A stretch of 64,000 bases of DNA from Solirubrobacterales bacterium. Lineage in GTDB: Bacteria; Actinomycetota; Thermoleophilia; Solirubrobacterales; 70-9. Shown in pieces: positions 10,757-42,438 of this stretch. Position numbers and translations under genes: made by a program. The notes under the pieces are model-generated. The model did no database searches. It saw nothing but the letters and a program-made list of their open reading frames with translations, and was not told the origin of the DNA. Positions within the stretch are counted from its first letter, which is position 1; each line of letters begins with the position of its first letter. The stretch lies in contig JAFKLL010000015.1 of the NCBI GenBank assembly GCA_017304845.1, positions 1 to 64,000 of the forward strand, in the 5' to 3' direction.

Positions 10757-10771
10757 TGAAAGGAGTGCGGG

Positions 10772-12276: not shown

Positions 12277-12339
12277 GGGTGTCGATCAAAGAATCGAAGG
12301 GCGGGACTGGACCCGCCGACCGACAACCAGGAGAGCGAA

Positions 12340-12663
12340 ATGGCACTTCCCGAAGTAACCGACGCGACGTTCAAGTCCGAGGCCCTCGAGGCCGAAGGTC
12401 ATGTGCTGGTCGATTTCTGGGCGCCCTGGTGCGGTCCGTGCCGCGTGGTCCATCCGGTGCTCGAGGAGATCAACGAGGAGCGTGACGACCTCAAGATCAT
12501 CAGCCTCAACATCGATGACAACCCCCAGACGGCGCAGCAGTACGGCGTCCTCTCGATCCCGACGATGATCCTGCTCAAGGACGGCGCCATGGTCAAGCAG
12601 TTGGTCGGCGCCCAGCCCAAGCGGAAGATCCTCGCGGAGCTCGAGCCGGCGCTGCAGGCTTAG
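12340..12663 (+). CDS. trxA: Thioredoxin
   Basis: Cytosolic disulfide reductase, 107 aa, full length. Active site WCGPC (Cys31, Cys34), cis-Pro74 in SIPTM, and a preceding LVDFWAPW strand. ATG 12340 is preceded by a GGAG binding site and places the fold at the normal register; an upstream in-frame ATG at 12268 would overlap the promoter. It heads a short run with a tautomerase and a cupin. Confidence 0.96.
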   Translation: MALPEVTDATFKSEALEAEGHVLVDFWAPWCGPCRVVHPVLEEINEERDDLKIISLNIDDNPQTAQQYGVLSIPTMILLKDGAMVKQLVGAQPKRKILAELEPALQA

Positions 12664-12666
12664 CGC

Positions 12667-12846
12667 ATGCCGTTCGTTCAGATCCACTGGTTCGAGGGCC
12701 GCTCCGACGAACAGAAGGCCGAGATCGCCAAGCGCATCGAAGAGGCGCTGGTCGAGGTCGCCGGGGCGGCGCCCGAGCACTGTTGGGTGAAGTTCGACGA
12801 CTCGAAGAAGTCGGACTTCATCATCCCCGAAGCCCGTCCCGAGTAG
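12667..12846 (+). CDS. 4-oxalocrotonate tautomerase-like small protein
   Basis: A 59-aa protein, MPFVQIHWFEGRSDEQKAEI at its start. Pro immediately follows Met, and in the 4-OT superfamily that Pro becomes the N-terminal general base after Met removal. The ~60-residue length and the first beta strand followed by a long helix fit the family. It begins three bases after the trxA stop, so it is in the same transcript. The substrate is unknown. Confidence 0.75.
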   Translation: MPFVQIHWFEGRSDEQKAEIAKRIEEALVEVAGAAPEHCWVKFDDSKKSDFIIPEARPE

Positions 12847-12857
12847 GCGGGCTTCGA

Positions 12858-13280
12858 TTGGCTTATCGCGCCCTCGGTTCGGGTGACGCCTTCTGGCGTC
12901 GCTCGAACCAGATGGGCGTGCTCAACACCGACCTGGGACGCCAGTTGGAGGCGACCCAACTCGGTGCCCGCCTCTGGCGGATCGAGCCGGGACAGGCCTC
13001 GACCCGTCACCGGCACCGGACCACCGAGGAGATCTACGTCCTGCTCGAGGGGACCGGCAAGCTGCGGGTCGGCGACGAGCTGCTGGTCCTCGGCCCGATG
13101 GACGCGGTCCTGGTCGAGCCGGGGACCGTGCGTCAACCGTTCAACGACACCGAGACCGACCAGCTCTGGCTGATCATGGGCGCTCCCGTCGAGCACGCCG
13201 ACACCACGGCGATGGACGAGGACCTGCTCGCCTGGATGTACCCCGACGGCCCGAAGGCGATGCCGCCCGAGCTCGGCTGA
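12858..13280 (+). CDS. Single-domain cupin protein
   Basis: Cupin beta-barrel of 140 aa. Motif 1 is visible as STRHRHRTTEEIYVLLEGTG, where two His and a Glu would bind metal, and the second half is marked by GTVRQPFND, in which the usual motif 2 His is replaced by Gln. Start is most likely TTG 12858, 11 bases after the tautomerase stop; earlier in-frame codons belong to the tautomerase gene. Function could be an isomerase, dioxygenase or simple binding protein. Confidence 0.78.
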   Translation: MAYRALGSGDAFWRRSNQMGVLNTDLGRQLEATQLGARLWRIEPGQASTRHRHRTTEEIYVLLEGTGKLRVGDELLVLGPMDAVLVEPGTVRQPFNDTETDQLWLIMGAPVEHADTTAMDEDLLAWMYPDGPKAMPPELG

Positions 13281-13292
13281 GCGCCGGCCCGC

Positions 13293-14732: not shown

Positions 14733-14822
14733 CTCGGTCTCCTTACCGTCGGGTTCCCCGCCCAGAGCCATTATCGCCGCCGGCTCCAGGAAGTCAACCG
14801 GCCCGGCCGGTGGCGGCTCGGG

Positions 14823-17800
14823 TCAGTCGACGCGGGCGACCGAGATCGCGAGCTCGCGACCGTCGATCGTGACCTGCGGCGTGCCCGGGGCGGCGGCTTC
14901 GGCGGTGTCGCCGCCGAGCTCGATCGAGCGGGCCAGGACCTCGCCGGTCACGTAGCCCTCATGGGCAGCGGCGGCGTCGAGGAGCTCCTGGTCGCCGGCC
15001 AGCGAGAGGCTGATCCGGTCGGTGATGTCCAGGCCGGCGTCCTTGCGGGCGTTCTGCACCGCGTGGACGATCTCGCGGGCCAGGCCTTCGCGGATCAGAT
15101 CGTCGTCGAGCTCCAGAGCGAGGGCGACGGCGTGGCCGGACTCGGCCTCCACCTGGTAGCCCTCCAGCGGCTCCATGCTGAGCAGCAGGTCGTCGGCGGT
15201 CAGGGTGTGGTCCCTGCCGTCGATCGAGATCCCGATCTCGCCGCCCGCCTCGACGGTCTGGGCGACATGGGTCGGGTCGAGCCCGGCGACCGCGGCGGAG
15301 ACCTGCGGCATCGACTTCCCGAAGCGCGGGCCGAGCGTGCGGAAGTTCGGCTTGACCAGATAGCTGACCAGATCGGACTGATCTGTCACGAACTCGAGCT
15401 CCTTGACGTTCAGCTCGGACTTGATCAGGGCCGCCTGGGTCTCGATCGCCGCGCGCTCGGCGTCGGTGGCGACCACGACCGCGCGGGCCAGCGGCTGCCG
15501 CACCTTCGCCTTGGCCTGGGCCCGGGAGGCGCGGCCGAGCTCGACCGTCTGCCGGGTCGCGGCCATCGCGGCCTCGAGGGCCTCGTCACGCAGCGCCGGG
15601 GCGGCGGCCGGATAGTCGCGCAGGTGGACCGAGTCGGGCATCTCGCCGAACTCGCGATCGGCGCCGCCGACCAGGTTCGAGTGGATCTCCTCGGCGATGA
15701 ACGGGGTGAAGGGAGCGAGCAGGGTCGAGACCTCGACCAGGCAGTGCCGGAGCGTCGCGAAGGCGGCGGCGTCGCCCTCCCAGAAGCGGCGCCGGGAGAG
15801 GCGGACGTACCAGTTGGAGAGCTCCTCGACATAGGCGGCGATCGCGCGGCCGGCGCCGGTGCAGTCGAACTCGTCCATCTTCGCGGTCACCTCTTCGACC
15901 GTCGCCTGCAGGCGGGAGACCGCCCAGCGATCGAGGTCGGTCGGCTCGGCGGCCGGGTCGGCGGGGGCGGAGGCGTCGATGCCCTCGGCGTTCGCGTAGA
16001 GGATCCAGAACGAGTACGTGTTCCAGAGGGTCAGGAGGAACGAACGATGGGCGTCCGAGATCGCGTCCATCGAGAAGCGGTAGCCGGCCCAGGGCTGCTG
16101 GGCGGTGAACAGGTACCAGCGGAAGGCGTCGGCGCCGAACTCGCCCAGCACCTCCCAGGGGGAGACGACGTTGCCCTTCGACTTCGACATCTTCTGGCCC
16201 TCGCCGTCGAGGATCAGGCCGAGGCAGACCACGTTCTCGTAGCTGGGCCGGTCGAAGAGCATCGTCGACTCGGCGAGCAGGGTGTAGAACCAACCGCGGG
16301 TCTGGTCGATCGCCTCGCAGATGAAGTCGGCCGGGAAGCGCTGCTCGAACTCTTCCTTCCCCTCGAACGGGTAGTGGAACTGGGCGAACGGCATCGCGCC
16401 CGAGTCGTACCAGGTGTCGATCACGCTGACCACGCGCTTCATCGTCCCCTTGCCGCACTCGCAATCCCAGGTCACGTCGTCGATGTAGGGGCGGTGCAGA
16501 TCCTCGGGAACGGAGCCGGCCTTCTCTTCCAGCTCGGCGATCGAGCCGGCGCAGAAGGTCCCGTCGCAGCCGGAGTCGGAGCACTCCCAGATCGGGAGCG
16601 GCGTGCCCCAGTAGCGATCGCGCGAGAGCGCCCAGTCGACGTTGTTCTCGAGCCAGCGGCCGAAGCGGCCGTCCTTGATGTGCTCGGGATGCCAGCCGAT
16701 GCCCTGGTTTCCGGCCAGCATCTCGTCGCGGGCCTCGGAGGTCTTGACGTACCAGCTCGCCTTGGCGTAGTAGAGCAGCGGGGTGCCGCAGCGCCAGCAA
16801 TGCGGGTAGGAGTGCTCGTAGTCGTTGGCCCGGAAGAGGCGGCCCTCGGCCCGTAGATGCTCGATCAGGCGGGCGGTGACGTCCTCGTCCTTGACGAACT
16901 CGCCGGCGAACCCGGTGACCCGCTCGTCGAAGCGACCGTCGAGGCCGACCGGGTTGAAGAGGGTCCCCTCGGGACCGCGGCTGCTCGGGTCGTAGAGGCC
17001 GTCGGCGATCGCCGCCCGGTAATCGTCCTCGCCGAAGGCCGGGGCGATGTGGACCAGGCCGGTGCCGTCGTCGGTGGTGACGAAGTCGCCCGCGATCACG
17101 CGGAACACGCCCGAGTTCTCGGCCATGCCGGGGAAGGGCGCCGCGTACTCGCGGCCGATCAGGTCGGTGGCCGGGAAGAGGCGGGTCGGCTCGACCCCCT
17201 CGCCGAGGACCTTCTCGACCAGCGGCTCGGCCAGGATCACCCGCTCGCCCTCGAACTCGACCTCGGCGTAGGTCACGTCCGCGTTGACCGCGACCGCGTA
17301 GTTGCCCGGCAGGGTCCAGGGGGTGGTGGTCCAGACCAGCATCGAGGCGTCCTCGTCGGCCAGCCGGAAGCGCACGAAGACGGAGGGGTCGATCACGTCC
17401 TTGTAGCCCTGCGCGACCTCATGCGAGGAGAGGGTGGTGCCGCAGCGGGGGCAGTAGGGCGAGACGCGGTGCCCCTCGTAGAGGCGGTCGCTCTCGTAGA
17501 ACTCCTTCAGGGACCACCAGACGGACTCGATGTAGCTGTTGTCCATCGTGACGTAGGGGTCGTCGAGGTCGATCCAGAAGCCGATCCGCTCGGTCAGCCG
17601 GTTCCACTCCTCGACGTAGGTGAAGACCGACTCGCGGCAGAGCCGGTTGAACTCCTCGATCCCGTACTCCTCGATCTCCTGCTTGGAGGAGATGCCGAGC
17701 TGCTTCTCGACCTCGAGCTCGACCGGCAGCCCGTGGCAGTCCCAGCCCGCCTTGCGGGGCACGCGGTAGCCGCGCATCGCCCGGTAGCGGGGGTAGATGT

Positions 17801-30186: not shown

Positions 30187-30349
30187 CGAATCTCCTTTTG
30201 GCCGGTCACGAGAGCCGGCTCGGCTGTGGCAGCGGTCCCGGTCTCCTCCGGGCCCGGACGGGATGAGGCAACGTTATCGCCATGTAAAGGAACCGGCAAA
30301 GGCCATCGATGTTGCGGTGGCGGGCGGGCAGGCATGACCGGGCCGGGGC

Positions 30350-30468
30350 GTCGGTCGCTGGTACGCTTGCCGCGAACGCCACGCGGGGAACACCGGTGAG
30401 AGTCCGGGGCTGACGCGCAACGGTAAGGAGGCACAGACCTTCAAGCCCGAGTACCGCAGGCGATCGCA
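30350..30468 (+). promoter_or_regulatory. Cobalamin riboswitch 1
   Basis: Conserved adenosylcobalamin-aptamer blocks occur in order: GGGGAACACCGGTGAGAGTC (30385), GCTGACGCGCAACGGTAAG (30409) and the B12 box AAGCCCGAGTACCGCAGG (30443). CGGTCG (30352) can pair with CGATCG (30461) to close P1. It lies in the 395-base gap between the divergent phosphoesterase and the DUF4430 protein gene at 30582; no other gene is visible in that gap, and I could not identify the promoter with confidence. No clear terminator hairpin follows, so control of translation is more likely than of transcription. Confidence 0.9.
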
Positions 30469-30581
30469 GTTGATTCGTACAGCCTCGCGAACGGGCAGTC
30501 GGCCATCACCTCTCCAGCAGGGACGGTCCGCTCCGATCGGGGCGCCAACCCACGGTAGTGAGACGCGAAGGAGTCTTGGTG

Positions 30582-32486
30582 ATGCAGCGATTTTTGACGG
30601 GTGTCCTAGCGGTTGCACTCGGTTTGATGGTGGCCTCGGCGCCCGCCCGGGCCGAAGTGAGCCCGACCGAGGCGGCCCAGGCCGCGGCCAACGGAGCAGC
30701 CTGGTTCGAAGCCACCCAGAACGAGTCCGGGGCGCTCGCGGCCGGTCTCGGCGGCGGTGACCGCTTCGGCGAGTGGTCGTTGACCGCGTTGGCGGCAGGG
30801 GGCGTGAACGCCGCGGATTCGCGGACCTCGCTTCTTTCCTCTTCGGCCCAGGACTACTACGACGAGTGGTGGAGCGTGCGCGGCCCGGGGACGGTCTCCT
30901 GCCCGGCCGGCGAGGACAACCCCGAGGTCTGCGCCGAGCAGCCGGACGGGCTCCCGACCGACTCGGCCCGCACCGTGCTCAGCGCCTTGGCCGGCGGCCT
31001 CCAGCCCTCGCGGATCGCGGTCGACCGTGACTACGTCTCCCGGCTCGCCTTCTGGTGGAGCGGTGACCAGATCGGCTACCGCGACCTGCTGAACGACGAC
31101 ATCTTCGGGATCATCGCCCTCGCCCATTCCGGGGCTCCGGTCGAGCTGCTCCAGACCCTCGCCCTGAAGGTCCGCGCTCAGCAGCTGGCCGACGGCGGCT
31201 GGCACTGGCGCGCGACCGACGGCGACGAGACGCTGCCGCCCACGGTCGCCTCGGACACCGACATGACCGCCGCCGCGATCGGCGCGCTCTGCGCCGCCGG
31301 CGCCGAGCCGGCGAGCGACGAGCAGATCCAGCGGGGCCTCGGCCTGATCGCCTCCCGCCAGTCGGCGGCCCAGGGCGGCTTCAGCACCAGCGCCAGCCCG
31401 ACCGGGACGAACACCAACACCACCGCCTGGGTGGCGAGCGCCTTCAACCTCTGCGGCATCGACCCCCAGAGCGAGCGCTGGACCACGGAGCAGGGCAAGA
31501 CCCCGCTCGACTTCCTGGTCGCGATGCAGAACGCGAACGGATCGTTCCGCTACATGCCGGCCAACCCGTCCGGGTCGGCCAATCTGATGGCCTCCTACCA
31601 GGCCGTCTCGCCGCTCGGCGGCAACGACTGGACCGGCGACGCCCCCACCCGCGACGACTCGGGTGACCCGGCGGTCAAGCCGGCGCCGTACGTCGCGGAC
31701 GGCACCGTCGTCCCGCTCACCCTGATCGTGGACCACGGCGAAGCGACCCCGCTCGAGGACCGCAGCCGCATGTGCCGTGTCGAGGTCGCCGAGGGCTCGG
31801 ACCTGCGTCAGGCACTGGCCGAGGCGGAGGTCGATTCGGCCCCCGGCAACTGCGTCGAGGGCGTCGAGACCACTGACGACGGGGGAGACGTGACGGTCGA
31901 CTCGCTCAACGGCGGCTCCGACGGTTGGAGCGTCGAGGTCGACGGCCGGGGCGAGGAGGGTTCCTACGGCGGGACGCTGGGCCTCGGCGACATGGTCGTG
32001 CTCCGTTACAAGGGCAGCACGACGCTCGCCCCGCCCGCCGTCAAGCCGGTCCCGCAGATCGGCGACGAGGCGGACCCCACCGACCCGACCGACCCCACGG
32101 ACCCGACCGACCCCACCGATCCGGAGGTCACCTACGCCCGGGCCAAGGTGGTCGGCAAGCCGACCCTGAAACGAGGCCGGGTGCGGGCCCGCGTGGCCTG
32201 TCCCGGCGGCGCCGCCCCGGCCGGCTGCACGGTCATGGCGACCTTCGCGGTGAGGGTGCCGGCGAAGAAGCGGTTCGCCGCCTTCGGGGCCACCGCCGCC
32301 GAGATCCCCGCCGGCCGGGCACGTCTGCTCCGGGTCAAGGCGGGCAAGCGGGTCCGGGCGGTCCTCAGGAAGACCGCTCGCCGTGGCGCCAAGGGTCGTG
32401 CGTTCGTCCGCGTGACCGTCGGGACGCGTTCCCCCGACGGTGTCGTGCGATACGCCCGCGGCCGGGGCCTGATCCGCGGCCACTGA
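30582..32486 (+). CDS. Secreted intrinsic-factor-like protein: alpha/alpha toroid plus DUF4430 domain
   Basis: A 634-aa exported protein under a cobalamin riboswitch. After a signal peptide (residues 1-24), residues ~30-360 contain prenyltransferase-like repeats (GGWHWRATD, QGGFSTSAS, NANGSFRYMP). Residues ~378-476 match a DUF4430/transcobalamin C-like beta domain, ending with GLGDMVVLRYKG. A TDP repeat linker (about 497-514) and a basic Ig-like tail follow. Alpha-then-beta order is that of animal intrinsic factor and transcobalamin, whose two domains clamp cobalamin. Start ATG 30582 has AAGGAG eight bases upstream. No anchor is visible, so it is probably soluble or wall-associated. A terpenoid-cyclase-like enzyme is the alternative, but the riboswitch argues for cobalamin binding. 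Confidence 0.8.
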   Translation: MQRFLTGVLAVALGLMVASAPARAEVSPTEAAQAAANGAAWFEATQNESGALAAGLGGGDRFGEWSLTALAAGGVNAADSRTSLLSSSAQDYYDEWWSVRGPGTVSCPAGEDNPEVCAEQPDGLPTDSARTVLSALAGGLQPSRIAVDRDYVSRLAFWWSGDQIGYRDLLNDDIFGIIALAHSGAPVELLQTLALKVRAQQLADGGWHWRATDGDETLPPTVASDTDMTAAAIGALCAAGAEPASDEQIQRGLGLIASRQSAAQGGFSTSASPTGTNTNTTAWVASAFNLCGIDPQSERWTTEQGKTPLDFLVAMQNANGSFRYMPANPSGSANLMASYQAVSPLGGNDWTGDAPTRDDSGDPAVKPAPYVADGTVVPLTLIVDHGEATPLEDRSRMCRVEVAEGSDLRQALAEAEVDSAPGNCVEGVETTDDGGDVTVDSLNGGSDGWSVEVDGRGEEGSYGGTLGLGDMVVLRYKGSTTLAPPAVKPVPQIGDEADPTDPTDPTDPTDPTDPEVTYARAKVVGKPTLKRGRVRARVACPGGAAPAGCTVMATFAVRVPAKKRFAAFGATAAEIPAGRARLLRVKAGKRVRAVLRKTARRGAKGRAFVRVTVGTRSPDGVVRYARGRGLIRGH

Positions 32487-34318
32487 TTCGGGCCGCGGCG
32501 AAAACCTGGCTCGCGGCGACGCTGGCCGCCCTCGTCGTGACGGGGGCGGCCGCGTCGGCGGCCCAGGCGACCGAGGTCTCGGTCCGGGTCGAGGGGGCCT
32601 CCTCGACGCTGCTCGAGACCGAGGTGGATACGACGGTCCACCGGGTGGACGGAGGCGACGGCTCTGGCGCCCACGACTGCCGGGGGCCGATCGGCGAGGC
32701 CGCCGGACCGACCGTCACCGGCGCGCTCGACGACGCGCTGAGAGCGGCCGGCAAGACCTGGAAGGGCCAGTGGAGCAGCAGCTCCGGAGACTTCCTGATC
32801 GACCGGGTCGCCGGCGAGTCCGCGACCAACGTCGGTCCCTGGACCATCCTGCTGAACGGAGTCCCGACCCCGGTCGGCGGCTGCTCGATGAAGGTCGTCG
32901 ACGGCGACCGGATCCTGTTCGCCCGAGACGTCGTGTTCCAGACCAAGACGCTTCGACTGACCGGCCCGGACCGGGTCGAGCCGGGGCAGGCCCTGGTCCT
33001 CACGGTCGAGGACGAACGCGACGGCGGCGCGCCGGTGAGCGGGGCCGAGATCGCGACCACGGGTCGCGCCGAGACGACCGGAGGCGACGGCCGGGCGACC
33101 TTCACCCTCGAAGAGCCGGGCCGCCACGTCTTCAAGGCCACCCACCCGGACGGCATCCGGTCCAACTCGCTCGAGGTCTGCGTCGGCGTCTCGGGCTGCG
33201 ATGGAAACGAAGGTCCCCCGGCCCGCATCCTCAAGTTCGCGGACGACTCCCGCTTCATGCGGGGCGCGGCTCCTCGGGTTCTGCGAGGGCGCTCGCGCGG
33301 GAGCTCGGTGCGAGTCGTGATCCGCAACGGGCGGGGGCGGGTGCTGGCCCGCGAAATCGCGGTGACCGACGGCCTCTGGGAGACCAGGATCGGCACCCTG
33401 CGGCCGGGTCGCTACCGCCTGCTCGCCTGGGCGATCGGGATCCCCGGCCAGACCTGGCGCACCGGCGTCAACCGGATCGGGCTGAGCGTGTCCGGGCGGC
33501 GACTGACCCGGGCCCGGATGGTCGGCCGGGCGATCCGCTTCCTCGACCGTCGGGCAGGCAGCGGGGAGGTGCGCGGCTCCGGCCTGCTGGCGGCCTGGTC
33601 CGGCCTTGCGCTCGGGGTCCGCGACCGCGGCTCGGCCGGGCGGGTCCTGCGCGCCCTGACCAGGCCGAACCCGCGCAGGTCGAGCGACGGCGAGCTGGCC
33701 CGGGACCTGGCCGCGATCATGCGGATCCGCAAGGGACGCTCCAGGGTGCCGGGCCTGGCCCGGCGTCTGCCGGCGATGAGGCGGGAGCTGGCCGGCCGGC
33801 AGGCCGAGGACGGCTCCTTCGGGCAGGACGTCAACCTCACGGCGATGTCGATCCTCGCCCTCCCGAACAGCTACGCGGCGACGCGCGCGGCCGCCTGGCT
33901 CGGCGAGGTCCAGGGGAGCGACGGCGGCTTCGGGATCTCTCCCGGCGGGTCGCCGGACATCGATACGACGGGGCTCGCCGCCTGGGCGCTGGCCTCCCAG
34001 GGGTACCGCGAGGAGGTCGCCTCGGCGGCGGCGTTCGTCCGTTCCGGTCAGAACCCCGACGGCGGATTCCCGGCGGTGGCCGGAGGCGCCTCCAACGCCC
34101 AGAGCACCGGCCTCGGCCTGCTCGCCATCCACCTCGCCGGAGGATCCCGCCTCGGCCCGAAGACCGAGGACGGGATCAGCCCGACCCACTACCTCGCGAC
34201 CCTCCAGCGCCGGGCGGGGTCGATCGACTACACGCCCGGGCTGAGGACGACCCCGGTCTGGGTCACCTCGCAGGCCGTCCTGGGCCTGACCGCCCGTTCG
34301 CTGCTGGTCAGCGGCTGA
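32486..34318 (+). CDS. Secreted DUF4430 protein with Ig-like domain and C-terminal alpha/alpha repeats
   Basis: About 610 aa. Order: signal peptide ending AAQA, DUF4430-type domain (VSVRVEGASSTLL to GGCSMKVVDGDRILF), an Ig-like domain (GDGRATFTLEEPGRHVFKA), a basic linker, then prenyltransferase-like repeats (DGGFGISPGGSPDIDTTGLA, NPDGGFPAVAGGASNAQSTG). The domain order is the reverse of the preceding protein. No ATG, GTG or TTG exists upstream of the signal peptide in this frame; CTG 32483 or ATT 32486, overlapping the preceding TGA, must be the start if no frameshift is present. Same riboswitch-controlled transcript as the gene before it. Convergent overlap of 11 bases with pabBC. Confidence 0.75.
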   Translation: MRAAAKTWLAATLAALVVTGAAASAAQATEVSVRVEGASSTLLETEVDTTVHRVDGGDGSGAHDCRGPIGEAAGPTVTGALDDALRAAGKTWKGQWSSSSGDFLIDRVAGESATNVGPWTILLNGVPTPVGGCSMKVVDGDRILFARDVVFQTKTLRLTGPDRVEPGQALVLTVEDERDGGAPVSGAEIATTGRAETTGGDGRATFTLEEPGRHVFKATHPDGIRSNSLEVCVGVSGCDGNEGPPARILKFADDSRFMRGAAPRVLRGRSRGSSVRVVIRNGRGRVLAREIAVTDGLWETRIGTLRPGRYRLLAWAIGIPGQTWRTGVNRIGLSVSGRRLTRARMVGRAIRFLDRRAGSGEVRGSGLLAAWSGLALGVRDRGSAGRVLRALTRPNPRRSSDGELARDLAAIMRIRKGRSRVPGLARRLPAMRRELAGRQAEDGSFGQDVNLTAMSILALPNSYAATRAAAWLGEVQGSDGGFGISPGGSPDIDTTGLAAWALASQGYREEVASAAAFVRSGQNPDGGFPAVAGGASNAQSTGLGLLAIHLAGGSRLGPKTEDGISPTHYLATLQRRAGSIDYTPGLRTTPVWVTSQAVLGLTARSLLVSG

Positions 34319-36326
34319 GCCGGGCCGGCAGGAGCCCGCGCAGCGAGTTGACGAGGAACGCCTCGCCGGAGGCCCGGAGCTCGTCCAGGGTGACCGTCCG
34401 CTCGGTCACGTCCCTGCCCTCGTGGCCGAGCTCGATCAGCCTTTGCCGCCCGACGCCGGGGAGGATGCGGCCGTCGGCGGGCGGGGTGGTCAGCCCTCCG
34501 TCGGCGTCGGTGACGAGCACGTTCGCCCAGGCGGCCTCGAGCAGATTCCCATCCAGGTCGACCAGGAGCGGGACCGCGGGCGAGACCGCCTCGGCAAGGG
34601 CGTCGAGCAGGCGGCGGTCCCGCCACTTGTGAGGGCCGAGACCGCCCGGCAGGGTGACCGGGGCGAGCATCACCGGCTCGGGCAGGTCGACGTGCGGCGT
34701 GAAGGTCGTCTCGATCTCGCGGCCGGGAACGAAGTCGATCCGGAGGCGCAGGTCGCCCCGCGTCGCGCCCGCCTCGGTCGCGATCCGTTCGGCGAGATCG
34801 CCCGGGATCTCCTCTCCGTAGAGCTCCGCGACGCTGGCTCGGAGGCGGGTCAGGTGATCTTCGAGATGGACCGGGACCCCATCCGAGACCCGGGTCGTCT
34901 CGAAGACGCCCGCGGCTGGATCCGGTCGGCCGACGGGCCTCGGGCCGAGGCGTAGAACCGGAGGCTCCTCACCGACCGGGCTCTCCGCCTCCCGTGAGGC
35001 CCCGATCGAATCGAGCAGCGGCTGCGCCTTCGTCGACGCCTCGGCGGCCTCTTCGCCCGGATCGGAATCGGCGACGATCCCACCGCCGGCATCGAGCCAG
35101 ATCCGCTCACCGCGGATCTCGAAGGTCCGGATCGCGACGTTGAGCTCCAGCCCGGCGAAGGGCGAGGAGAAGCCGATCGCCCCCGTGAAGACCTGGCGGG
35201 CGCTCGATTCCAGCTCGGCGATCGCCTCGATCGCAGCCAGCTTCGGCGCTCCGGTGACCGAGCCCGGCGGGAAGGTGCCGGCGAGCAGGGCGGCGTCGTC
35301 GACCTCCGGCCTCAGCACGCCCTCCACCTCGGAGACCAGATGCCACACCCCGGGATGGGCCCGCGGCTCGGCCAGCGCGGTGACCTTGACGCTGCCGGGC
35401 AGGCAGACCCGGCCCAGATCGTTGCGGACCAGATCGACGATCATCGTGTTCTCCGCCCGGTCCTTCCGCGAGCGGGCGAGCTCGTCGCGCGTGGCGGCGG
35501 CCGCTTCGGGGTCGGGGACGCGCGGCCGGGTGCCCTTGATCGGGGCGCTGCGGACCCGGTCCCGCCGCCGTTCCAGGAACAGCTCCGGGGACAGGCTGGC
35601 GATCGCGGACCGACCGTCCGCGAGGTACGCGGCCCGGTCCGGGGTGAGCTCCCCGGCCGCCCGTGTGAAGAGGTCGATCGGGTCTCCCCGGAGGGTCGAA
35701 CGCAGTCGCAGCGCGATGTTCGCCTGGTACAGGTCCCCTTCCGCGATGCGTTCACGGCAGGCCTGAACCGCCCGGGTGTGACCCTGCGGCGAGGGATCGG
35801 AACGCCAGGGGCCGGTCGTGAACTCGCCCGGCGCCGCAGGCCCGTCGAGCAGCCGTGCGCGCAGGGTCTCCAGCCGCTCCCGGAGGATCTGCTCGCGTTC
35901 GCCGGTCCAGATCGCCTCGAACCACCACTGGCCTTCGGCATCGAGGCGCAGCAGATGGTCGTAGCGGGCGAGCGAGAACCTCGGGAGGCGCTCACGCGAG
36001 GGAGGCGACATCGTCGGCGTCTCGCCCGGGACCCCTAGCTCGAAGCCGAGATAGCCGAACCATCCCCCGCCGACGAAATGATCGGCCGGACCGTCGGCTT
36101 CGTCCCGCTCGGCGAGCAGGGCGAATGGATCCTCCGTCTCGGCGGCCACCCGGACCGGCTCCGAGCCGACCAGGGCGCCACCGCCGGCCCACTCGCCGAC
36201 CATCGCGAACGGACGGGCATCGCCACGAACCAGCTGGGCTTCGTGGCCGGGGGGGACGGCCCCCTCCAGGGCGACGCGCACGGGGCGGCATCGCCCGTCC
36301 GATCCGGAGGGGGCCGTGAATGTCAA
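34308..36326 (-). CDS. pabBC: Fused aminodeoxychorismate synthase I and 4-amino-4-deoxychorismate lyase (PabB-PabC)
   Basis: Bifunctional 672-aa enzyme for p-aminobenzoate, the folate precursor. Residues ~1-440 are the chorismate-binding PabB part with SAPIKGTRPR, ENTMIVDLVRNDLGRV and FPPGSVTGAPK. Residues ~460-672 are a class IV PLP aminotransferase/lyase with GPHKWRDRRLLDA (cofactor Lys) and VDLDGNLLEAAWANVLV. It begins 10 bases after the DUF4430 gene at 36337-37605, so both should be under cobalamin riboswitch 2. No pabA is adjacent. Cobalamin control of a folate-branch gene is unusual. Confidence 0.9.
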   Translation of the reverse strand: MTFTAPSGSDGRCRPVRVALEGAVPPGHEAQLVRGDARPFAMVGEWAGGGALVGSEPVRVAAETEDPFALLAERDEADGPADHFVGGGWFGYLGFELGVPGETPTMSPPSRERLPRFSLARYDHLLRLDAEGQWWFEAIWTGEREQILRERLETLRARLLDGPAAPGEFTTGPWRSDPSPQGHTRAVQACRERIAEGDLYQANIALRLRSTLRGDPIDLFTRAAGELTPDRAAYLADGRSAIASLSPELFLERRRDRVRSAPIKGTRPRVPDPEAAAATRDELARSRKDRAENTMIVDLVRNDLGRVCLPGSVKVTALAEPRAHPGVWHLVSEVEGVLRPEVDDAALLAGTFPPGSVTGAPKLAAIEAIAELESSARQVFTGAIGFSSPFAGLELNVAIRTFEIRGERIWLDAGGGIVADSDPGEEAAEASTKAQPLLDSIGASREAESPVGEEPPVLRLGPRPVGRPDPAAGVFETTRVSDGVPVHLEDHLTRLRASVAELYGEEIPGDLAERIATEAGATRGDLRLRIDFVPGREIETTFTPHVDLPEPVMLAPVTLPGGLGPHKWRDRRLLDALAEAVSPAVPLLVDLDGNLLEAAWANVLVTDADGGLTTPPADGRILPGVGRQRLIELGHEGRDVTERTVTLDELRASGEAFLVNSLRGLLPARLSR

Positions 36327-36336
36327 TGGCGCCCCG

Positions 36337-37605
36337 TCAGCGACGCATGATCCGGAACGGCCTGGCCTTGGTCTGGCCCTTCAGCCCAGCGGCGCCGAGG
36401 CCGACGCGGAGCACGGTCCTTCCTCGTCCCGCCTTCGACCGGACCTTCGCGAAGAGCTGGAGCTTTCTGGTCGAGCCGGCGGGCAGAGTGCCGATCGCCC
36501 GGCAGGCTCCGGTCCTGACCCGCCTGTCGCCGCGCAGGCACAGCCTGACCCGGGTGGCGGGGGCATCGCCGGCGTTCTTCACGGCCACGGCGATCTTGAC
36601 CCGGCGACCCGGCTTGACCGCTCGCGGGGAGACGTTGAACCGGACCAGCCTCAGATCCGCCTTCCCTTCGGGCTGTACCGGGCACAGTGAGGGATCGGTC
36701 TCGCAGGTCGGTTCGGGCTCCGGGGGACACAGCGAGGGATCAGTCTCACAGGTCGGTTCCGGTTCGGGAACCTCGACCGCGGGGTCTTCGCCGACCCGGG
36801 CCGGGATCCGGCTCGGGGCCGCGCCGGTGCATCCGTCGCCGGCGACCCGCTCGACGCAGACGTCGATCGAGTTCGAGGCGACCGCGTCGTCGACCCCGGA
36901 GCTGCCGGGATCGCGGGCCTTGAGCCGCTTCCAGCCCGGCTCGTTGAAGGTCACGCCGGCCACGCCGTTGGCATCGGAGTCGCCGGGAACGACGACCTCG
37001 GCCGGGTAGGGCACGGCGGCGGCGTTCAGGCCGCCCACGGTGGCTCCTTCGTAGCTCGGGCCGGTGTCGCTGGACACCGTGACCGAGACGGGCTCGCCGA
37101 CGATCGCGGTCTCAGGCCCTTCCAGGTGGAGCATGGGACGGCCGCTGAAGGCGTCGTAGACCCAGAGGATCTCGTCGCCGTCGACGATCCGGAACTGGCA
37201 GCCGCCGACCGGGGTGTACTCGTCGTTGACCAGGATGCCCCACCACCAGCCATTGCCGTTGTCCTCGGCGTCAGGGCCCCATCGGGTCAGGAAGTAGTCG
37301 TCGTAGGTCGTGTACCACTGGCCGTCGAAATCCTGGCCGATGATCTCCATCGCGTCGGCCGTCGCGGCGGTCGGGACGGGGCCCGGTTCCGGGTTGGCGT
37401 CCAGATTGGTGCCGTCGCAGGTTCTGGGCTCGGTGTCGGAGGCGGACTGGAGCTGCCGCCCGTCGGTGTGGACGACCCGGTCGAAGATCGTCGAGGTGGC
37501 ACCCTCGACGCGGACCGAGACGTCGACCGGCTCCGCGGCGGATGACTGGACGCCGACCGCCAGGACGGATGCGACGGCAAGCAGGACTGCAAGGACTCTT
37601 CTCAT
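36337..37605 (-). CDS. Secreted DUF4430 protein with Ig-like and CARDB-like domains
   Basis: A 422-aa exported protein directly downstream of cobalamin riboswitch 2. Signal peptide to about residue 24, then a DUF4430-type domain (VSVRVEGATSTIFDR to GGCQFRIVDGDEILWVY), closely similar to the N-terminus of the protein at 32486. An Ig-like domain follows (GVAGVTFNEPGWKRLKA), a duplicated Cys-containing linker (EPEPTCETDPSLCP twice) and a basic CARDB-like domain. It has no alpha/alpha repeats. I chose the second of two close ATGs (37605) because AAAGGGG is then seven bases upstream; ATG 37611 would leave only two. Probably a cobalamin- or corrinoid-binding surface protein. Confidence 0.78.
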   Translation of the reverse strand: MRRVLAVLLAVASVLAVGVQSSAAEPVDVSVRVEGATSTIFDRVVHTDGRQLQSASDTEPRTCDGTNLDANPEPGPVPTAATADAMEIIGQDFDGQWYTTYDDYFLTRWGPDAEDNGNGWWWGILVNDEYTPVGGCQFRIVDGDEILWVYDAFSGRPMLHLEGPETAIVGEPVSVTVSSDTGPSYEGATVGGLNAAAVPYPAEVVVPGDSDANGVAGVTFNEPGWKRLKARDPGSSGVDDAVASNSIDVCVERVAGDGCTGAAPSRIPARVGEDPAVEVPEPEPTCETDPSLCPPEPEPTCETDPSLCPVQPEGKADLRLVRFNVSPRAVKPGRRVKIAVAVKNAGDAPATRVRLCLRGDRRVRTGACRAIGTLPAGSTRKLQLFAKVRSKAGRGRTVLRVGLGAAGLKGQTKARPFRIMRR

Positions 37606-37642
37606 TCTCATTACCCCTTTCCACGAGGGCTCGAATTGGCGG

Positions 37643-37790
37643 GTGCTGTCGGTGTCCTGACTTACGAGCGATCCCGTCGCGCCTTCCCGGATTGACTCCA
37701 GTGGCTTGCTTCGCGCTAGCGGCGGGCGTCCTCGATCACAGTGGCGGGTCCGTGCCGGCTTCTCACCGGCTTCCACGCACAGCAACCTCT
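37643..37790 (-). promoter_or_regulatory. Cobalamin riboswitch 2
   Basis: On the minus strand: GGAAGCCGGTGAGAAGCCGG, then CACGGACCCGCCACTGTGA (near 37735-37755), AAGCCACTGG and the box GTAAGTCAGGACACCGACAG (near 37646-37665). GGTTGCTGT at the 5' end can pair with ACAGCACC at the 3' end to form P1. These are textbook aptamer blocks. The start codon of the DUF4430 gene is only about 40 bases downstream, leaving room for translational but hardly for a terminator-type platform. Confidence 0.93.
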
Positions 37791-37879
37791 ATGTACGCCG
37801 CAACCGTACAGGTTCCGGTCGCCTCTCCGGAGTCCAGGACTCTCTCCGCAAATAGCGCGATCGCGGCCGGTTGGCGTCC

Positions 37880-38020
37880 GGGGCGAGTCCTACAGTCGTC
37901 GCTACCCGGAATACCGGGTGACGTGAAAGCCAGCGAAGTCCGGTGAGATCCCGGCGCTGTCCCGCAACGGTAAAGCCCCTCGCGAGGGGATGAGCCCGGT
38001 CGCCTGCTCCACGTCGTTGG
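37880..38020 (+). promoter_or_regulatory. Cobalamin riboswitch 3
   Basis: Plus-strand aptamer blocks: AGTCCGGTGAGATCCCGGCG (near 37937), CTGTCCCGCAACGGTAAAGC (near 37957), a CCCCTCGCGAGGGG hairpin, and the B12 box GAGCCCGGTCGCCTGC (near 37992). It is divergent from riboswitch 2; the 497-base gap 37606-38102 holds these two elements, their promoters (not identified) and the nrdB leader, and no gene. Confidence 0.92.
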
Positions 38021-38075
38021 CCAGTCCTCGGAAGAAGGACGATCCAATCTGCGCGCACGCGTCGAGCAGGGGTCC

Positions 38076-38100
38076 CTTCCTCCGATGAACCCGGAGGAAG
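38076..38100 (+). promoter_or_regulatory. Shine-Dalgarno-sequestering hairpin of nrdB
   Basis: Perfect 9-base stem: CTTCCTCCG (38076-38084) and CGGAGGAAG (38092-38100), loop ATGAACC. The right arm contains GGAGG (38093-38097), five bases before TTG 38103. The stem would block ribosome binding and is the likely expression platform of riboswitch 3. An in-frame ATG lies in the loop but has no binding site of its own. Confidence 0.75.
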
Positions 38101-38102
38101 CT

Positions 38103-39188
38103 TTGAAGAAGACATACGAGATCGGATCCCGGACCTTCGTCCTCGATCAGGCCAAGGCCGAGCAGGCCCTGGCCGCCAAGCGGGTCATCGGTGGTCGCGA
38201 GACCATGACCTTCAACCTGCTGCCGCTCCGCTACGACTGGGCGTACGAGCTGTACCGGACGATGAAGGCGAACCACTGGGAGCCCGAGGACGTGCCGATG
38301 CAGAAGGACGTCGAGCAGTGGCGCGGCGCCGACGCGCTGACCGAGATCGACCGCTGGATCATCCGCATGGGGATCGGCTACTTCTCGGCCGCCGAGGGGA
38401 TCGTGGGCGACAACATCATCCACGTGGTCCGCGAGCTGATGACCGCCTCGGAGCTGAAGCTGGTCCTCGGCCGGCACGCCCACGAGGAGAACATCCACGC
38501 CGACTCGCTGCTCTACATGATCTCCTCGCTCGGGATCGACCCGCACGAGTGCGAGGCGATGTTCGACGACGTCGCCACGATCAACGCCAAGAACGAGTTC
38601 GTGACCAACGTCTCCCGGGAGCTGCGGCGCGATCTCGACATGACCGTGCTCGAGGACCAGCGCCTGCTGGCCAAGAACATCTTCGTGTTCGGCCAGTGCA
38701 TGGAGGGCACCCAGTTCTACGGCCTGTTCGGCATGATCCTCTCGCTCTACCGCCAGGGCAAGCTGACCGGGATCGGCACCATGTTCCGCTACACGCTGCG
38801 GGACGAGTCGAACCACATCGAGCTGTTCCGCAAGCTGCTGCTCGAGCTCTTCCGCGAGAACCCGGAGGTCGCCTCCCCCGAGTTCAAGGAGGAGCTGCGC
38901 GAGCTGATGCGGGAGGCGGTCACCCTCGAGAAGGACTTCATCGCCGACTGCCTGCCGGTCAGCGGGGTCGGGCTCTCCGAGGAGGAGTTCAGCGCCTACA
39001 TCGACTTCATCGCCGACCGCCGGCTGGTCGGGGTCGGGCTCGATCCCCTGAACGAGAGCCTCGAGAACCCGTTGCCCTGGCTGGCCGAGCTGATGGATGT
39101 GCGCAAGGAGCAGAACTTCTTCGAGGGCCGGGTCACCGAGTACCAGAAGGCCTCATCGCTGGCGGCGGTGAGCGACGACGAGCTTTGA
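38103..39188 (+). CDS. nrdB: Class I ribonucleotide reductase small subunit, radical Tyr replaced by Leu
   Basis: R2 subunit (361 aa) that supplies the oxidant for deoxyribonucleotide synthesis. Metal ligands by ungapped alignment with the E. coli spacing: Glu98 (AAEGIVGDN, replacing Asp84), Glu129 and His132 (EENIH), and a later ESNH pair. The Tyr122 position is Leu136 (codon 38508), and Glu for Asp84 is also a subclass Ic trait, so a Tyr-free Mn/Fe or similar cofactor is likely. TTG 38103 is preferred because GGAGG is five bases upstream; ATG 38085 is the alternative. Controlled by riboswitch 3 and followed by nrdA. Confidence 0.93.
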   Translation: MKKTYEIGSRTFVLDQAKAEQALAAKRVIGGRETMTFNLLPLRYDWAYELYRTMKANHWEPEDVPMQKDVEQWRGADALTEIDRWIIRMGIGYFSAAEGIVGDNIIHVVRELMTASELKLVLGRHAHEENIHADSLLYMISSLGIDPHECEAMFDDVATINAKNEFVTNVSRELRRDLDMTVLEDQRLLAKNIFVFGQCMEGTQFYGLFGMILSLYRQGKLTGIGTMFRYTLRDESNHIELFRKLLLELFRENPEVASPEFKEELRELMREAVTLEKDFIADCLPVSGVGLSEEEFSAYIDFIADRRLVGVGLDPLNESLENPLPWLAELMDVRKEQNFFEGRVTEYQKASSLAAVSDDEL

Positions 39189-39216
39189 GCGAAGAGACGA
39201 GAGAGAAGGACTGAAG

Positions 39217-42200
39217 ATGCTGATCGAATTCGACGAGATCCTCCACGATCTGGAACTGAAGCGGGCGGCCTCGCTGCCGACCGCCGAGCTGCCGCTGGCC
39301 GGCGTGACCGAGGCCCTGGCCGGCCTCGAGGCGGGGGCGAGCGGCCTGACCGTGGCCCGGCCCGAGGGCGAGCGGCCCTTCGAGGCCGCCGACGCCGGGT
39401 CGCTCGCCGCGGCGGCGCTCGGCACGGTCGCCTCCGCCCGGGGCGAGGAGGCGGACCTGCCGGCCGCGCGCGAGCTGATCCGCCGCACGACCAGCCGGGT
39501 CGTCGAGCAGCTCGACCGGCTCGGGGCCGGCGCCACGGTGACCGAGTCGGATCTCTCCTCGCTGGTCGAGGCGGCGCTGATCGCCGAGGGCGAGTACGAG
39601 GTGGCGAAGGCGCTGGTGATCCGTCGCACGACCCGCAGCGCGGCCGCCGCCAAGAAGGGAGCCGAGATCCGGCTGATCCGCCGGTCCGGCCAGGTCGTCC
39701 CCTGGAACGAAGAGAAGATCGAGATCGCGGTCCGCAAGGCCTTCCTCTCACTCCAGCGCGACCCGGAGCCTTCGGTCGCTCTGGCCGCCAGGGTGACCGA
39801 ACGGGCCAAGGGCCTCGGCGTCGCCTACGTGCCGATCGAGACCGTCCAGGACTTCGTGCAGGAAGAGCTGGTCCTGGCCGGGCACATGCGGGTCGCCGAG
39901 CGCTACATCGTCTACCGGGCCGAGCGCGGCCTGATCCGGGCCAGAGACAGGGCCGAGGGCGACGCTCCCGCGACCCCGGTCCCGATCGCGGTCACCGAGG
40001 CGGACGGCACGACCTCGGTCTGGGACGGCGAGGACCTGCGTCCCCGGATCGCCTTCGCTTCGATCGGCCTGGACCTGCCGCATGACCGGCAGCGGATCGA
40101 GGCCGAGCTTCGCCGCGGCGTCCAACCGGGCGTCAGCCGGGCCGAGCTCTCGAAGCTGATCGTCCTCAACGCCAAGGCCCTGGTCGAACGGGACTCGGAC
40201 TACTCCCGCTTCGCCGGCCGGATCCTGCTCAGCTACGTCTACGAGGAGACGCTCGACTGGAGCATCACCCGGGACGGCATCGGCCATCTCCGCGAGGCCC
40301 ATCAGAAGGCCCTGCGCCCGATGCTCGAGCATGGCGCGTCGATCAAGCGGATCGATCCGAAGCTGCTCGAGTACGACCTCGACCGGCTCGCCGCCGCGCT
40401 CGACCCGAGCGCCGATCTCGACTTCGATTTCCTCGGCCTGCAGACCCTCTACGACCGCTACCTGATCGTCGACAAGACCGGCAGGCGGGACCGTCGGATC
40501 GAGGCCCCGCAGCTGTTCTGGATGCGGGTCGCGATGGGCGTCTGCCTGCCGGAGGAAGGCGACCGCGAAGAGCGGGCGCTCGACCTCTACTCGGTCTACA
40601 AGGACCGCCGCTTCTGCTCCTCGACGCCGACCCTGTTCAACGCCGGCACCCTCCACTCGCAGCTCTCCAGTTGCTACCTCTACGTGGTCGACGACACGCT
40701 CAGCTCGATCATGCAGCGCGGCATCGCCGAGAACGCGATGTGCTCGAAGTGGGCCGGCGGGCTCGGGGGCTCCTGGACCAAGGTGCGCGGCACCGGCTCC
40801 CACATCGAGTCGACCAACGGCGAGAGCCAGGGGCTCGTCCCGTTCCTCAAGCTCCACAACGACCAGCTGGTCGCGGTGAACCAGGGCGGCAAGCGGGCCG
40901 GCTCCGGCTGCGCCTACCTGGAGACCTGGCACAACGACATCGGCGACTTCCTGGAGCTGCGGCGGAACACCGGCGACGACCGCCGCCGCACCCATGACAT
41001 GAACACCGCCAACTGGATCCCCGATCTCTTCATGAAGCGGGTCGAGGCGCGCGGCCACTGGACCCTGTTCCGCAGCTCGCAGGTGCCGGACCTCCACGAG
41101 ATCTACGGCAGGGAGTTCGAGCGTCGCTACGAGGAGTACGAGGCGAGGGCCGAGGCCGGCGAGATCTACGGTCAGCGGGTCCCGGCGATCGAGCTCTGGA
41201 AGCAGATGCTGAAGGTGCTGTTCGAGACCGGGCATCCGTGGATGACCTTCAAGGACGCCTGCAACGTGCGCAGCCCGCAGGATCACGCGGGGGTGATCCA
41301 CAGCTCGAACCTCTGTACCGAGATCACCCTCAACACCGGGCCGGACGAGACCGCCGTCTGCAACCTCGGGTCGGTGGTGATCGACCGCCACCTCACCCCG
41401 GAGGGCGAGATCGACCACGAGAAGCTGGAGGAGACGATCCGGATCGCGGTCCGGGCGCTCGACAACGTGATCGACGTGAACTTCTACCCGACCGAGGCGG
41501 CGAAGACCGCGAACTCGCGGCATCGCCCGGTCGGCCTCGGCGTGATGGGCCTGCAGTACGCCCTGTACGAGAAGGGGGTCGAGTTCGGCTCCGACGAGGC
41601 GGTCGATTTCAACGACGAGATGATGGAGGCGATCGCCTTCCACGCCTACTCGGCCTCGAGCGATCTCGCCGCGGAGCGGGGCGCCTACCAGAGCTACGAG
41701 GGCTCGAAGTGGAGTCGTGGCCTGCTGCCGCAGGACACGATCGACCTGCTCGAGGAGGAGCGGGGAGAGCCGATCGAGGTGCCGCGCGGCGGCCGTCTCG
41801 ACTGGGGCCCGGTGCGGGAGAAGATCGCGGCTCAGGGCATGCGGAACTCGAACGTGATCGCGATCGCCCCGACCGCGACGATCGCCAACATCATGGGCAC
41901 CTCGCCCTGCATCGAGCCGATCTACAAGAACCTGTTCGCCAAGTCGAATCTCTCCGGCGACTTCACGATCCTCAACCCGTACCTGGTCAAGGATCTGAAG
42001 GAGGCCGGCCTCTGGAACGAAGAACTGGCCGGCGAGCTCAAGTACTTCGACGGCGACCTGACCGAGATCGAGGTGGTGCCGGAGGAGATCCGACGGCGCT
42101 ACCGGACCGCCTTCCAGATTCCCTACGAGTACCTGATCGACGCGGCTGCGCGACGGCAGAAGTGGATCGACCAGTCGCAGTCGGTCAACCTCTTCCTGCC

Positions 42201-42438
42201 CGAACCGGACCTGAAGGCCCTCAGCCACATGTACCGGCGCGCCTGGCACGCGGGCCTCAAGACCACCTACTACCTGCGTACCCTGGGCGCCTCGACGATC
42301 GAGAAGTCGACCGTCAGCAAGTCGGCGGCCAAGCCCGAGCCGGAGGCGGCGATGGGAGACACCGCCCTCAGCCCCGAGCAGATGGCCTGCTCGATCGAGG
42401 CCGCCCGCAACGGGGAGGAGTGCGAGGCCTGCCAGTGA
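39217..42438 (+). CDS. nrdA: Class I ribonucleotide reductase large subunit
   Basis: Catalytic R1 subunit, 1073 aa. A full ATP-cone is at about residues 150-240 (LIRRSGQVVPWNEEKIEIAV). Before it, residues ~90-140 (RRTTSRVVEQLDRLGAG to EGEYEVAKALVIRR) look like a decayed first cone. Active-site elements: SSCYLY near residue 484, NLCTEI (Asn, thiyl Cys, Glu) near 696, AVCNLGS near 709, and a C-terminal redox pair CEACQ. Length is larger than the ~760-aa E. coli type and similar to multi-cone R1 proteins. It starts 28 bases after nrdB with an AAGGA-like site. Confidence 0.95.
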   Translation: MLIEFDEILHDLELKRAASLPTAELPLAGVTEALAGLEAGASGLTVARPEGERPFEAADAGSLAAAALGTVASARGEEADLPAARELIRRTTSRVVEQLDRLGAGATVTESDLSSLVEAALIAEGEYEVAKALVIRRTTRSAAAAKKGAEIRLIRRSGQVVPWNEEKIEIAVRKAFLSLQRDPEPSVALAARVTERAKGLGVAYVPIETVQDFVQEELVLAGHMRVAERYIVYRAERGLIRARDRAEGDAPATPVPIAVTEADGTTSVWDGEDLRPRIAFASIGLDLPHDRQRIEAELRRGVQPGVSRAELSKLIVLNAKALVERDSDYSRFAGRILLSYVYEETLDWSITRDGIGHLREAHQKALRPMLEHGASIKRIDPKLLEYDLDRLAAALDPSADLDFDFLGLQTLYDRYLIVDKTGRRDRRIEAPQLFWMRVAMGVCLPEEGDREERALDLYSVYKDRRFCSSTPTLFNAGTLHSQLSSCYLYVVDDTLSSIMQRGIAENAMCSKWAGGLGGSWTKVRGTGSHIESTNGESQGLVPFLKLHNDQLVAVNQGGKRAGSGCAYLETWHNDIGDFLELRRNTGDDRRRTHDMNTANWIPDLFMKRVEARGHWTLFRSSQVPDLHEIYGREFERRYEEYEARAEAGEIYGQRVPAIELWKQMLKVLFETGHPWMTFKDACNVRSPQDHAGVIHSSNLCTEITLNTGPDETAVCNLGSVVIDRHLTPEGEIDHEKLEETIRIAVRALDNVIDVNFYPTEAAKTANSRHRPVGLGVMGLQYALYEKGVEFGSDEAVDFNDEMMEAIAFHAYSASSDLAAERGAYQSYEGSKWSRGLLPQDTIDLLEEERGEPIEVPRGGRLDWGPVREKIAAQGMRNSNVIAIAPTATIANIMGTSPCIEPIYKNLFAKSNLSGDFTILNPYLVKDLKEAGLWNEELAGELKYFDGDLTEIEVVPEEIRRRYRTAFQIPYEYLIDAAARRQKWIDQSQSVNLFLPEPDLKALSHMYRRAWHAGLKTTYYLRTLGASTIEKSTVSKSAAKPEPEAAMGDTALSPEQMACSIEAARNGEECEACQ

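What the first reader, a model, noticed from the sequence alone, without database searches (positions are those of the whole stretch)
30350..37790. B12-riboswitch-controlled bacterial proteins built like intrinsic factor/transcobalamin
Seen: two cobalamin riboswitches, each followed directly by secreted proteins carrying DUF4430-type domains; the first protein places an alpha/alpha-toroid with prenyltransferase-like repeats before the DUF4430 domain. Known: animal intrinsic factor and transcobalamin are an alpha6/alpha6 toroid followed by a beta domain, with cobalamin clamped between; DUF4430 is the transcobalamin-C-like family. Inference: this actinobacterium secretes corrinoid-binding proteins when B12 is scarce. 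No uptake transporter is in the window, so the partner is elsewhere.
Basis: partly seen in the sequence, partly recalled or inferred. Interest (0 to 1): 0.92.

Follow-up and report, generated by a model that had tools for sequence, protein, structure and literature searches.

The report
Bacterial B12-scavenging proteins resembling intrinsic factor
A soil-type actinobacterium and its relatives carry vitamin-B12-regulated genes for secreted proteins with the same two-part design as the B12 carriers of the animal gut and blood, tied to a known type of B12 membrane importer, so the idea that bacteria catch B12 in an intrinsic-factor-like way can now be tested directly.

Summary
Two RF00174 cobalamin riboswitches (30342-30475 +; 37630-37799 -) directly precede secreted-protein genes. 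A third, missed and sub-threshold (37876-38025 +), precedes nrdBA. P0001 models as an alpha/alpha toroid plus C-terminal beta domain; its 14 best PDB fold matches are all transcobalamin, intrinsic factor or haptocorrin. P0002 has DUF4430-like then toroid domains; P0003 has DUF4430-like then Ig-like domains.

The missing transporter is elsewhere in the genome (contig C51): riboswitch, two DUF4430 proteins, EcfT, EcfAA, and an S-component fused to a toroid. That S-component matches only CbrT of the cobalamin transporter ECF-CbrT (PDB 6FNP, E 1.6e-15). In 61 relatives, 71 of 79 DUF4430 hits lie 0.3-3.6 kb downstream of a cobalamin riboswitch. All six P0001 homologues found in the same order sit behind one.

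Best reading: B12-repressed extracytoplasmic corrinoid-capture parts of a CbrT-type ECF system. Not shown: corrinoid binding, and the clamp. The P0001 model does not superpose as a rigid body on holo-transcobalamin (rmsd about 20 A), and the P0003 DUF4430 model is poor. [quoted passage not shown] is already an annotation term, so this is a new variant of a known kind.

The parts
30342..30475 (+). cobalamin riboswitch 1 (RF00174), upstream of P0001/P0002
   Evidence: cmscan 32.7 bits; same position occupied by 64-86 bit riboswitches before six homologues
30582..32486 (+). P0001, secreted protein: signal peptide, alpha/alpha toroid, DUF4430-like beta domain, Pro/Thr linker, basic C-terminal domain
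30654..31646 (+). P0001 toroid (residues 25-355)
   Evidence: AF2 model, VIA Z about 22 to squalene-hopene cyclase over model residues 1-331
31692..32018 (+). P0001 beta domain (residues 371-479), beta-beta-alpha-beta5
   Evidence: DSSP of model; Foldseek alignments to TC/IF/HC of about 490 columns span both domains
32483..34318 (+). P0002, secreted protein with DUF4430-like domain, Ig-like domain and C-terminal toroid; start codon CTG or ATT overlapping the P0001 stop
32570..32947 (+). P0002 DUF4430-like domain
   Evidence: Pfam 14.6 bits, below cut-off; 37% identical to the P0003 domain; hhalign of the joint profile to the DUF4430 lipoprotein family E 8.7e-6
33770..34315 (+). P0002 toroid
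   Evidence: Pfam SQHop_cyclase_N 1.1e-4, Prenyltrans 7e-4; matches toroids of S-component fusions in many relatives
37614..37629 (-). CCCTCGTGGAAAGGGG hairpin over the Shine-Dalgarno sequence of P0003 (probable expression platform)
   Evidence: hairpin present with varied sequence after the aptamer in five homologous loci
37630..37799 (-). cobalamin riboswitch 2 (RF00174), upstream of P0003
   Evidence: cmscan 71.7 bits
36337..37611 (-). P0003, secreted protein: DUF4430-like domain, Ig-like domain, Pro-rich linker, CARDB-like domain
37876..38025 (+). cobalamin riboswitch 3 (sub-threshold), upstream of nrdBA
   Evidence: 29.1 bits, genome E 1.4e-5; equivalent element before nrdBA in L063 and L068
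38085..39188 (+). nrdB, class I ribonucleotide reductase small chain
   Evidence: Pfam Ribonuc_red_sm 4e-65
39217..42438 (+). nrdA, ribonucleotide reductase large chain
   Evidence: ORF; adjacent to nrdB; TIGR02504 below cut-off

Best explanation
The three proteins are B12-repressed, extracytoplasmic corrinoid-capture components that work with a CbrT-type ECF cobalamin importer encoded elsewhere in the genome (contig C51). When B12 is plentiful the riboswitches close, probably by masking the ribosome-binding site. When it is scarce the genes open, together with the B12-independent enzyme genes nrdBA (and metE in Conexibacter). A DUF4430 beta domain and an alpha/alpha toroid, on one chain (P0001, P0002) or on separate chains (P0003 plus an anchored toroid), hold the corrinoid between them as transcobalamin and intrinsic factor do. 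They pass it to the S-component, which in this genome is itself fused to a toroid. Shown: riboswitches, gene linkage, domain make-up, CbrT relationship of the S-component, fold match of P0001 to TC/IF. Inferred: corrinoid binding, sandwiching, hand-over, direction of regulation.
For: Riboswitches. 71 of 79 DUF4430 hits in 61 relatives lie 0.27-3.6 kb downstream of a cobalamin riboswitch on the same strand (about 0.1 expected by chance). Six of six P0001 homologues from the same order, and the P0003 homologues beside them, follow divergent riboswitches. C51 operon: riboswitch, DUF4430, DUF4430 lipoprotein, EcfT, EcfAA, S-component-toroid. S-components of three distant lineages match only PDB 6fnp_A, E 1.6e-15, 1.2e-21, 8e-15; 6FNP is ECF-CbrT (PMC5997447). 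Fusion links: S+toroid fused here, separate in Patulibacter and deeper lineages; DUF4430+toroid fused in P0002, separate elsewhere. Foldseek of P0001: top 14 PDB hits are TC/IF/HC. DUF4430 is the C-terminal domain of TCN proteins (PMC4350170). CbiC absent from all 13 genomes of the genus searched, a marker of no corrin-ring synthesis, while B12-binding-domain enzymes are present. Island neighbours metE and nrdBA behind cobalamin riboswitches.
Against: No binding data. The P0001 model does not superpose rigidly on holo-TC/IF (TM 0.3-0.45, rmsd about 20 A). The DUF4430 part of the P0003 model has pLDDT about 50 and Foldseek gives only Ig-type matches. Pfam DUF4430 below cut-off in P0002/P0003, none in P0001; P0001 beta domain versus the DUF4430 family is weak by sequence (E 0.0037, prob 9). 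By sequence the toroid is closest to terpene cyclases. In the phylum sample 13 of 29 genomes with DUF4430 showed no riboswitch nearby (the riboswitch list was cut, so the linked number is a lower bound). The genome is a 75% complete MAG.
Confidence: 0.75

Rival explanations
1. The proteins are B12-regulated but bind something other than a corrinoid, for example a B12 precursor such as dimethylbenzimidazole, cobalt, or a nutrient needed when B12-dependent enzymes stop; the toroid is just a binding scaffold.
For: Riboswitches also control genes that do not handle corrinoids (nrdBA, metE). An HtaA-type protein stands behind another cobalamin riboswitch in this genome.
Against: The S-component next to them matches only CbrT, which transports cobalamin and cobinamide (PMC5997447). 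The fold match is to proven B12 carriers.
Confidence: 0.13
2. The toroid proteins are class II terpene cyclase or prenyltransferase-like enzymes.
For: Sequence matches to squalene-hopene cyclase and VIA Z about 22 to it.
Against: The cyclase DxDD acid motif is absent: P0001 has DTDMT and its five named homologues DID(M/S)T. Export signal, fusion to or adjacency with ECF parts and a beta domain do not suit a cyclase. With the beta domain included, TC/IF/HC outrank cyclases.
Confidence: 0.04
3. They are cell-surface or adhesion proteins whose riboswitch control is incidental.
For: Ig-like, CARDB-like and basic C-terminal domains are common in surface proteins; DUF4430 occurs in 1500-1900 aa surface proteins without a detected riboswitch in some relatives.
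Against: In L091, even without a riboswitch, the large DUF4430 protein lies next to a DUF4430 lipoprotein, EcfA and a CbrT-like S gene. Riboswitch linkage is far above chance.
Confidence: 0.06

Closest known systems
Animal transcobalamin / intrinsic factor / haptocorrin (alpha6/alpha6 toroid + beta domain)
   Same: Same two folds in the same order in P0001; secreted; best PDB fold matches
   Different: No detectable sequence match; predicted domain orientation differs; P0002 has the reverse order and P0003 lacks the toroid; here tied to an ECF importer, not endocytosis
ECF-CbrT cobalamin transporter of Lactobacillus delbrueckii (PDB 6FNP)
   Same: Homologous S-component with EcfT and EcfA; cobalamin context
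   Different: Dedicated EcfT and double EcfA in one operon, S-component fused to a toroid, DUF4430 proteins and cobalamin riboswitch; satellite loci with P0001-P0003
'Additional lipoprotein component of putative cobalamin ECF transporter' (annotation term, L. rhamnosus K8Q211) and DUF4430 protein LGG_02295 beside rtpR (PMC9963975)
   Same: Predicted link of an extra lipoprotein to cobalamin ECF transport, and of a DUF4430 gene to a ribonucleotide reductase gene
   Different: No toroid or intrinsic-factor-like architecture is described there; function untested
NF053823 SCO2321 family membrane protein
   Same: Toroid parts of P0001, P0002 and the S-toroid fusion match it
   Different: All below its cut-off of 300 bits; the family has no stated function

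Membership tests
Transcobalamin/intrinsic factor-type B12 carrier | alpha/alpha toroid followed by beta domain on one secreted chain | tested here: met
   P0001 only: AF2 pLDDT 81.6, pTM 0.86; Foldseek top hits TC/IF/HC over about 490 columns. Not P0002 (reverse order) or P0003 (no toroid)
Transcobalamin/intrinsic factor-type B12 carrier | clamp geometry between the two domains | tested here: inconclusive
   Rigid TM 0.3-0.45, rmsd about 20 A; apo single-chain model from a 6-row alignment
Transcobalamin/intrinsic factor-type B12 carrier | sequence homology to TC/IF | tested here: not met
   Profiles A3, A8, A9 find no TC/IF chain up to E 10
Transcobalamin/intrinsic factor-type B12 carrier | high-affinity cobalamin binding | not testable with these tools
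   needs purified protein
DUF4430 (PF14478) | score above the Pfam cut-off of 23.8 bits | tested here: not met
   P0003 17.8, P0002 14.6, P0001 no hit; the C51 proteins 27 and 33.5 are over it
CbrT-type cobalamin ECF transporter (C51 operon) | S-component homologous to CbrT | tested here: met
   Only PDB hit with a significant E-value is 6fnp_A, E 1.6e-15
CbrT-type cobalamin ECF transporter (C51 operon) | EcfT and EcfA energizing module | tested here: met
   CbiQ/EcfT 33.9 bits over cut-off; double ABC ATPase, best NCBIfam match ECF_ATPase
CbrT-type cobalamin ECF transporter (C51 operon) | cobalamin transport | not testable with these tools
   needs uptake assay
Cobalamin riboswitch RF00174 | score above the Rfam gathering score of 31.5 | tested here: met
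   71.7 and 32.7 bits; the nrdB element, 29.1, is not over it
Class II terpene cyclase | DxDD catalytic motif | tested here: not met
   DxDM/S in P0001 and homologues

The most novel reading that the evidence does not exclude
Bacteria use an intrinsic-factor-like sandwich (toroid + DUF4430 beta domain), split or fused, as the capture device of a CbrT-type ECF transporter, with a toroid docked on the S-component itself, and animal intrinsic factor and transcobalamin derive from, or converged on, this bacterial module.
Probability: 0.4. Interest if true: 0.92.

Novelty: new variant of a known kind. Interest (0 to 1): 0.8.

Why it matters
ECF transporters are known with membrane-embedded S-components as their binding proteins; here exported capture proteins, and an S-component fused to a toroid, appear to be added. 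If the proteins bind corrinoids, bacteria have a B12 carrier built like intrinsic factor, which bears on where the animal B12 carriers came from and on how B12-auxotrophic bacteria compete for cobamides. DUF4430, toroid (SCO2321-type) and CbrT-like genes occur together in several lineages of the phylum, so one set of binding assays would give a function to several uncharacterised families.

Tried and rejected
Sequence profiles of the P0001 beta domain, the P0003-type domain and the DUF4430 lipoproteins against PDB sequences: no TC/IF match. Foldseek and VIA on the P0003 model: only its Ig domain was tested; the DUF4430 part was too uncertain. VIA on P0001 listed only toroid matches, TC/IF not among its 50 rows; it covers one domain, so this says nothing against TC. 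First related-loci query too diverse. NrdJ search found only nrdA itself, so no B12-dependent RNR is seen in the 75% complete MAG. FecCD (BtuC-type) permease not found in this MAG, but most congeners have one, so BtuCDF as a second route is not excluded. Literature: no paper in the held library describes bacterial DUF4430/toroid proteins as B12 binders; subscription papers are not held.
Full report
OBSERVATION. cmscan gives two RF00174 cobalamin riboswitches, 37630-37799 - (71.7 bits) and 30342-30475 + (32.7 bits, just over the cut-off). A whole-genome search adds three more: C51:21368 (95.5 bits), C14:115009 (72.9) and a sub-threshold one at window 37876-38025 + (29.1 bits), 59 bases before nrdB. 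P0001 (30582-32486 +) and P0002 (32483-34318 +) follow riboswitch 1; P0003 (36337-37611 -) follows riboswitch 2. All three start with Sec-type signal peptides by eye. P0002 lacks an ATG/GTG/TTG start in place; CTG or ATT overlaps the P0001 stop.

DOMAINS. Pfam finds DUF4430 below cut-off in P0002 and P0003, toroid families below cut-off in P0002, and only a marginal toroid hit in P0001. The P0003/P0002 domain family matches the clear DUF4430 lipoprotein family at hhalign E 8.7e-6, prob 83. For P0001, AlphaFold2 on residues 25-490 with five homologues gives pLDDT 81.6 and pTM 0.86: helices to model residue 321, then beta-beta-alpha-beta5. Foldseek against the PDB ranks 14 transcobalamin, intrinsic factor and haptocorrin chains first (E 2.7e-6 to 1e-4; most alignments about 490 columns, so both domains), before terpene cyclases and prenyltransferases (from 1.7e-4). 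Rigid superposition is poor (TM 0.28-0.45, rmsd about 20 A): the folds and their order agree, the predicted orientation does not. The P0003 model is confident only in its Ig domain.

THE MISSING TRANSPORTER. Contig C51 has riboswitch, secreted DUF4430 protein, DUF4430 lipoprotein, EcfT, double EcfA, and an S-component fused to a toroid with a C-terminal membrane anchor. The S-component matches one PDB sequence significantly, 6fnp_A, at E 1.6e-15. S-components from Patulibacter and a distant lineage do the same (1.2e-21, 8e-15). 6FNP is ECF-CbrT, shown to transport cobalamin and cobinamide (PMC5997447).

CONSERVATION. In 61 relatives 71 of 79 DUF4430 hits lie 273-3636 bases downstream of a cobalamin riboswitch on the same strand; about 0.1 is expected by chance. 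The six P0001 homologues of the same order all lie behind a riboswitch that is back to back with a second one. In the named loci (Conexibacter arvalis, Conexibacter sp. CPCC 206217, Patulibacter minatonensis, Patulibacter sp., P. medicamentivorans) the second riboswitch drives a P0003 homologue. An anchored toroid lies beside it, and in two Patulibacter loci ECF genes follow. Deep-branching relatives have riboswitch, beta-propeller protein, DUF4430 lipoprotein, EcfT, EcfA, CbrT-like S, separate toroid. The parts are thus fused in some genomes and separate in others: S+toroid, DUF4430+toroid.

REGULON AND PHYSIOLOGY. nrdBA lies behind a cobalamin riboswitch also in G010 and G037; Conexibacter has riboswitch-metE near the P0001/P0003 genes and nrdA beside metE in one locus. 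CbiC, a corrin-ring synthesis marker, is absent from all 13 genomes of the genus searched; of five order relatives that have it, three lack DUF4430. The genome has three B12-binding-domain proteins. The genus therefore looks like a cobamide user that must import (inference; the window genome is incomplete). After the P3 aptamers a CCCTC...AGGGG-type hairpin covers the Shine-Dalgarno sequence in the window and five homologues, which suggests translational control (inference).

MECHANISM. Scarce B12 opens the riboswitches; exported DUF4430 and toroid domains capture a corrinoid, probably between them as in TC/IF; it passes to a CbrT-type S-component, which carries or neighbours a toroid. The riboswitches, gene linkage, CbrT relationship and the P0001 fold are shown by computation; binding, sandwich and hand-over are inferred. 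The cyclase rival is weakened by loss of the DxDD motif.

NOVELTY. An 'additional lipoprotein component of putative cobalamin ECF transporter' already exists as an annotation term, and a DUF4430 gene beside rtpR has been noted (PMC9963975). DUF4430 is known as the C-terminal domain of TCN proteins (PMC4350170). No held paper joins these into a bacterial intrinsic-factor-like B12 system. Hence: new variant of a known kind, strongly testable. The window organism is unusual in its genus: it has five riboswitch hits where searched congeners have none to two, and extra P0001-P0003 loci shared with the Conexibacter/Patulibacter family of the order.

Noticed in passing
window 37876-38025 + and 38085-42438 +: Sub-threshold cobalamin riboswitch before nrdBA, back to back with riboswitch 2; the same arrangement precedes nrdBA in two other genomes (L063, L068). 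No separate NrdJ was found in this incomplete genome.
   Followed up: partly
L010 (G000:C14) 6737-15199 -: Another strong cobalamin riboswitch (72.9 bits) before a 1354-aa secreted Fn3 protein, a small secreted protein and a protein with two HtaA (haem-binding family) domains, 235 bits; hints at HtaA-type corrinoid binding.
   Followed up: partly
L044 5149-7317 -, L045 5121-7199 -: In Conexibacter the gene after the P0001 homologue encodes a secreted RCC1-type beta-propeller with collagen-like repeats.
   Followed up: partly
L086 1448-3991 +: First gene behind the riboswitch in a deep-branching lineage is a secreted PQQ-type beta-propeller protein, before the DUF4430 lipoprotein and ECF genes.
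   Followed up: partly
L091 3836-12428 +: Lineage without a detected riboswitch nearby: 1537-aa surface protein with DUF4430 repeats next to a DUF4430 lipoprotein, an ABC ATPase and a CbrT-like S-component.
   Followed up: partly
window 32483-32488 +: P0002 has no usual start codon; CTG/ATT overlaps the TGA of P0001 in another frame: unusual initiation, coupling, or an assembly error.
   Followed up: no
window 32150-32483 +, G000:C5:36156-36527: Basic, Arg/Lys-rich C-terminal domain of P0001 recurs in another protein of the genome; perhaps a cell-wall retention domain.
   Followed up: no
L045 12527-14599 -: In Conexibacter sp. CPCC 206217 the stand-alone anchored toroid gene has its own cobalamin riboswitch (78.4 bits).
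   Followed up: yes
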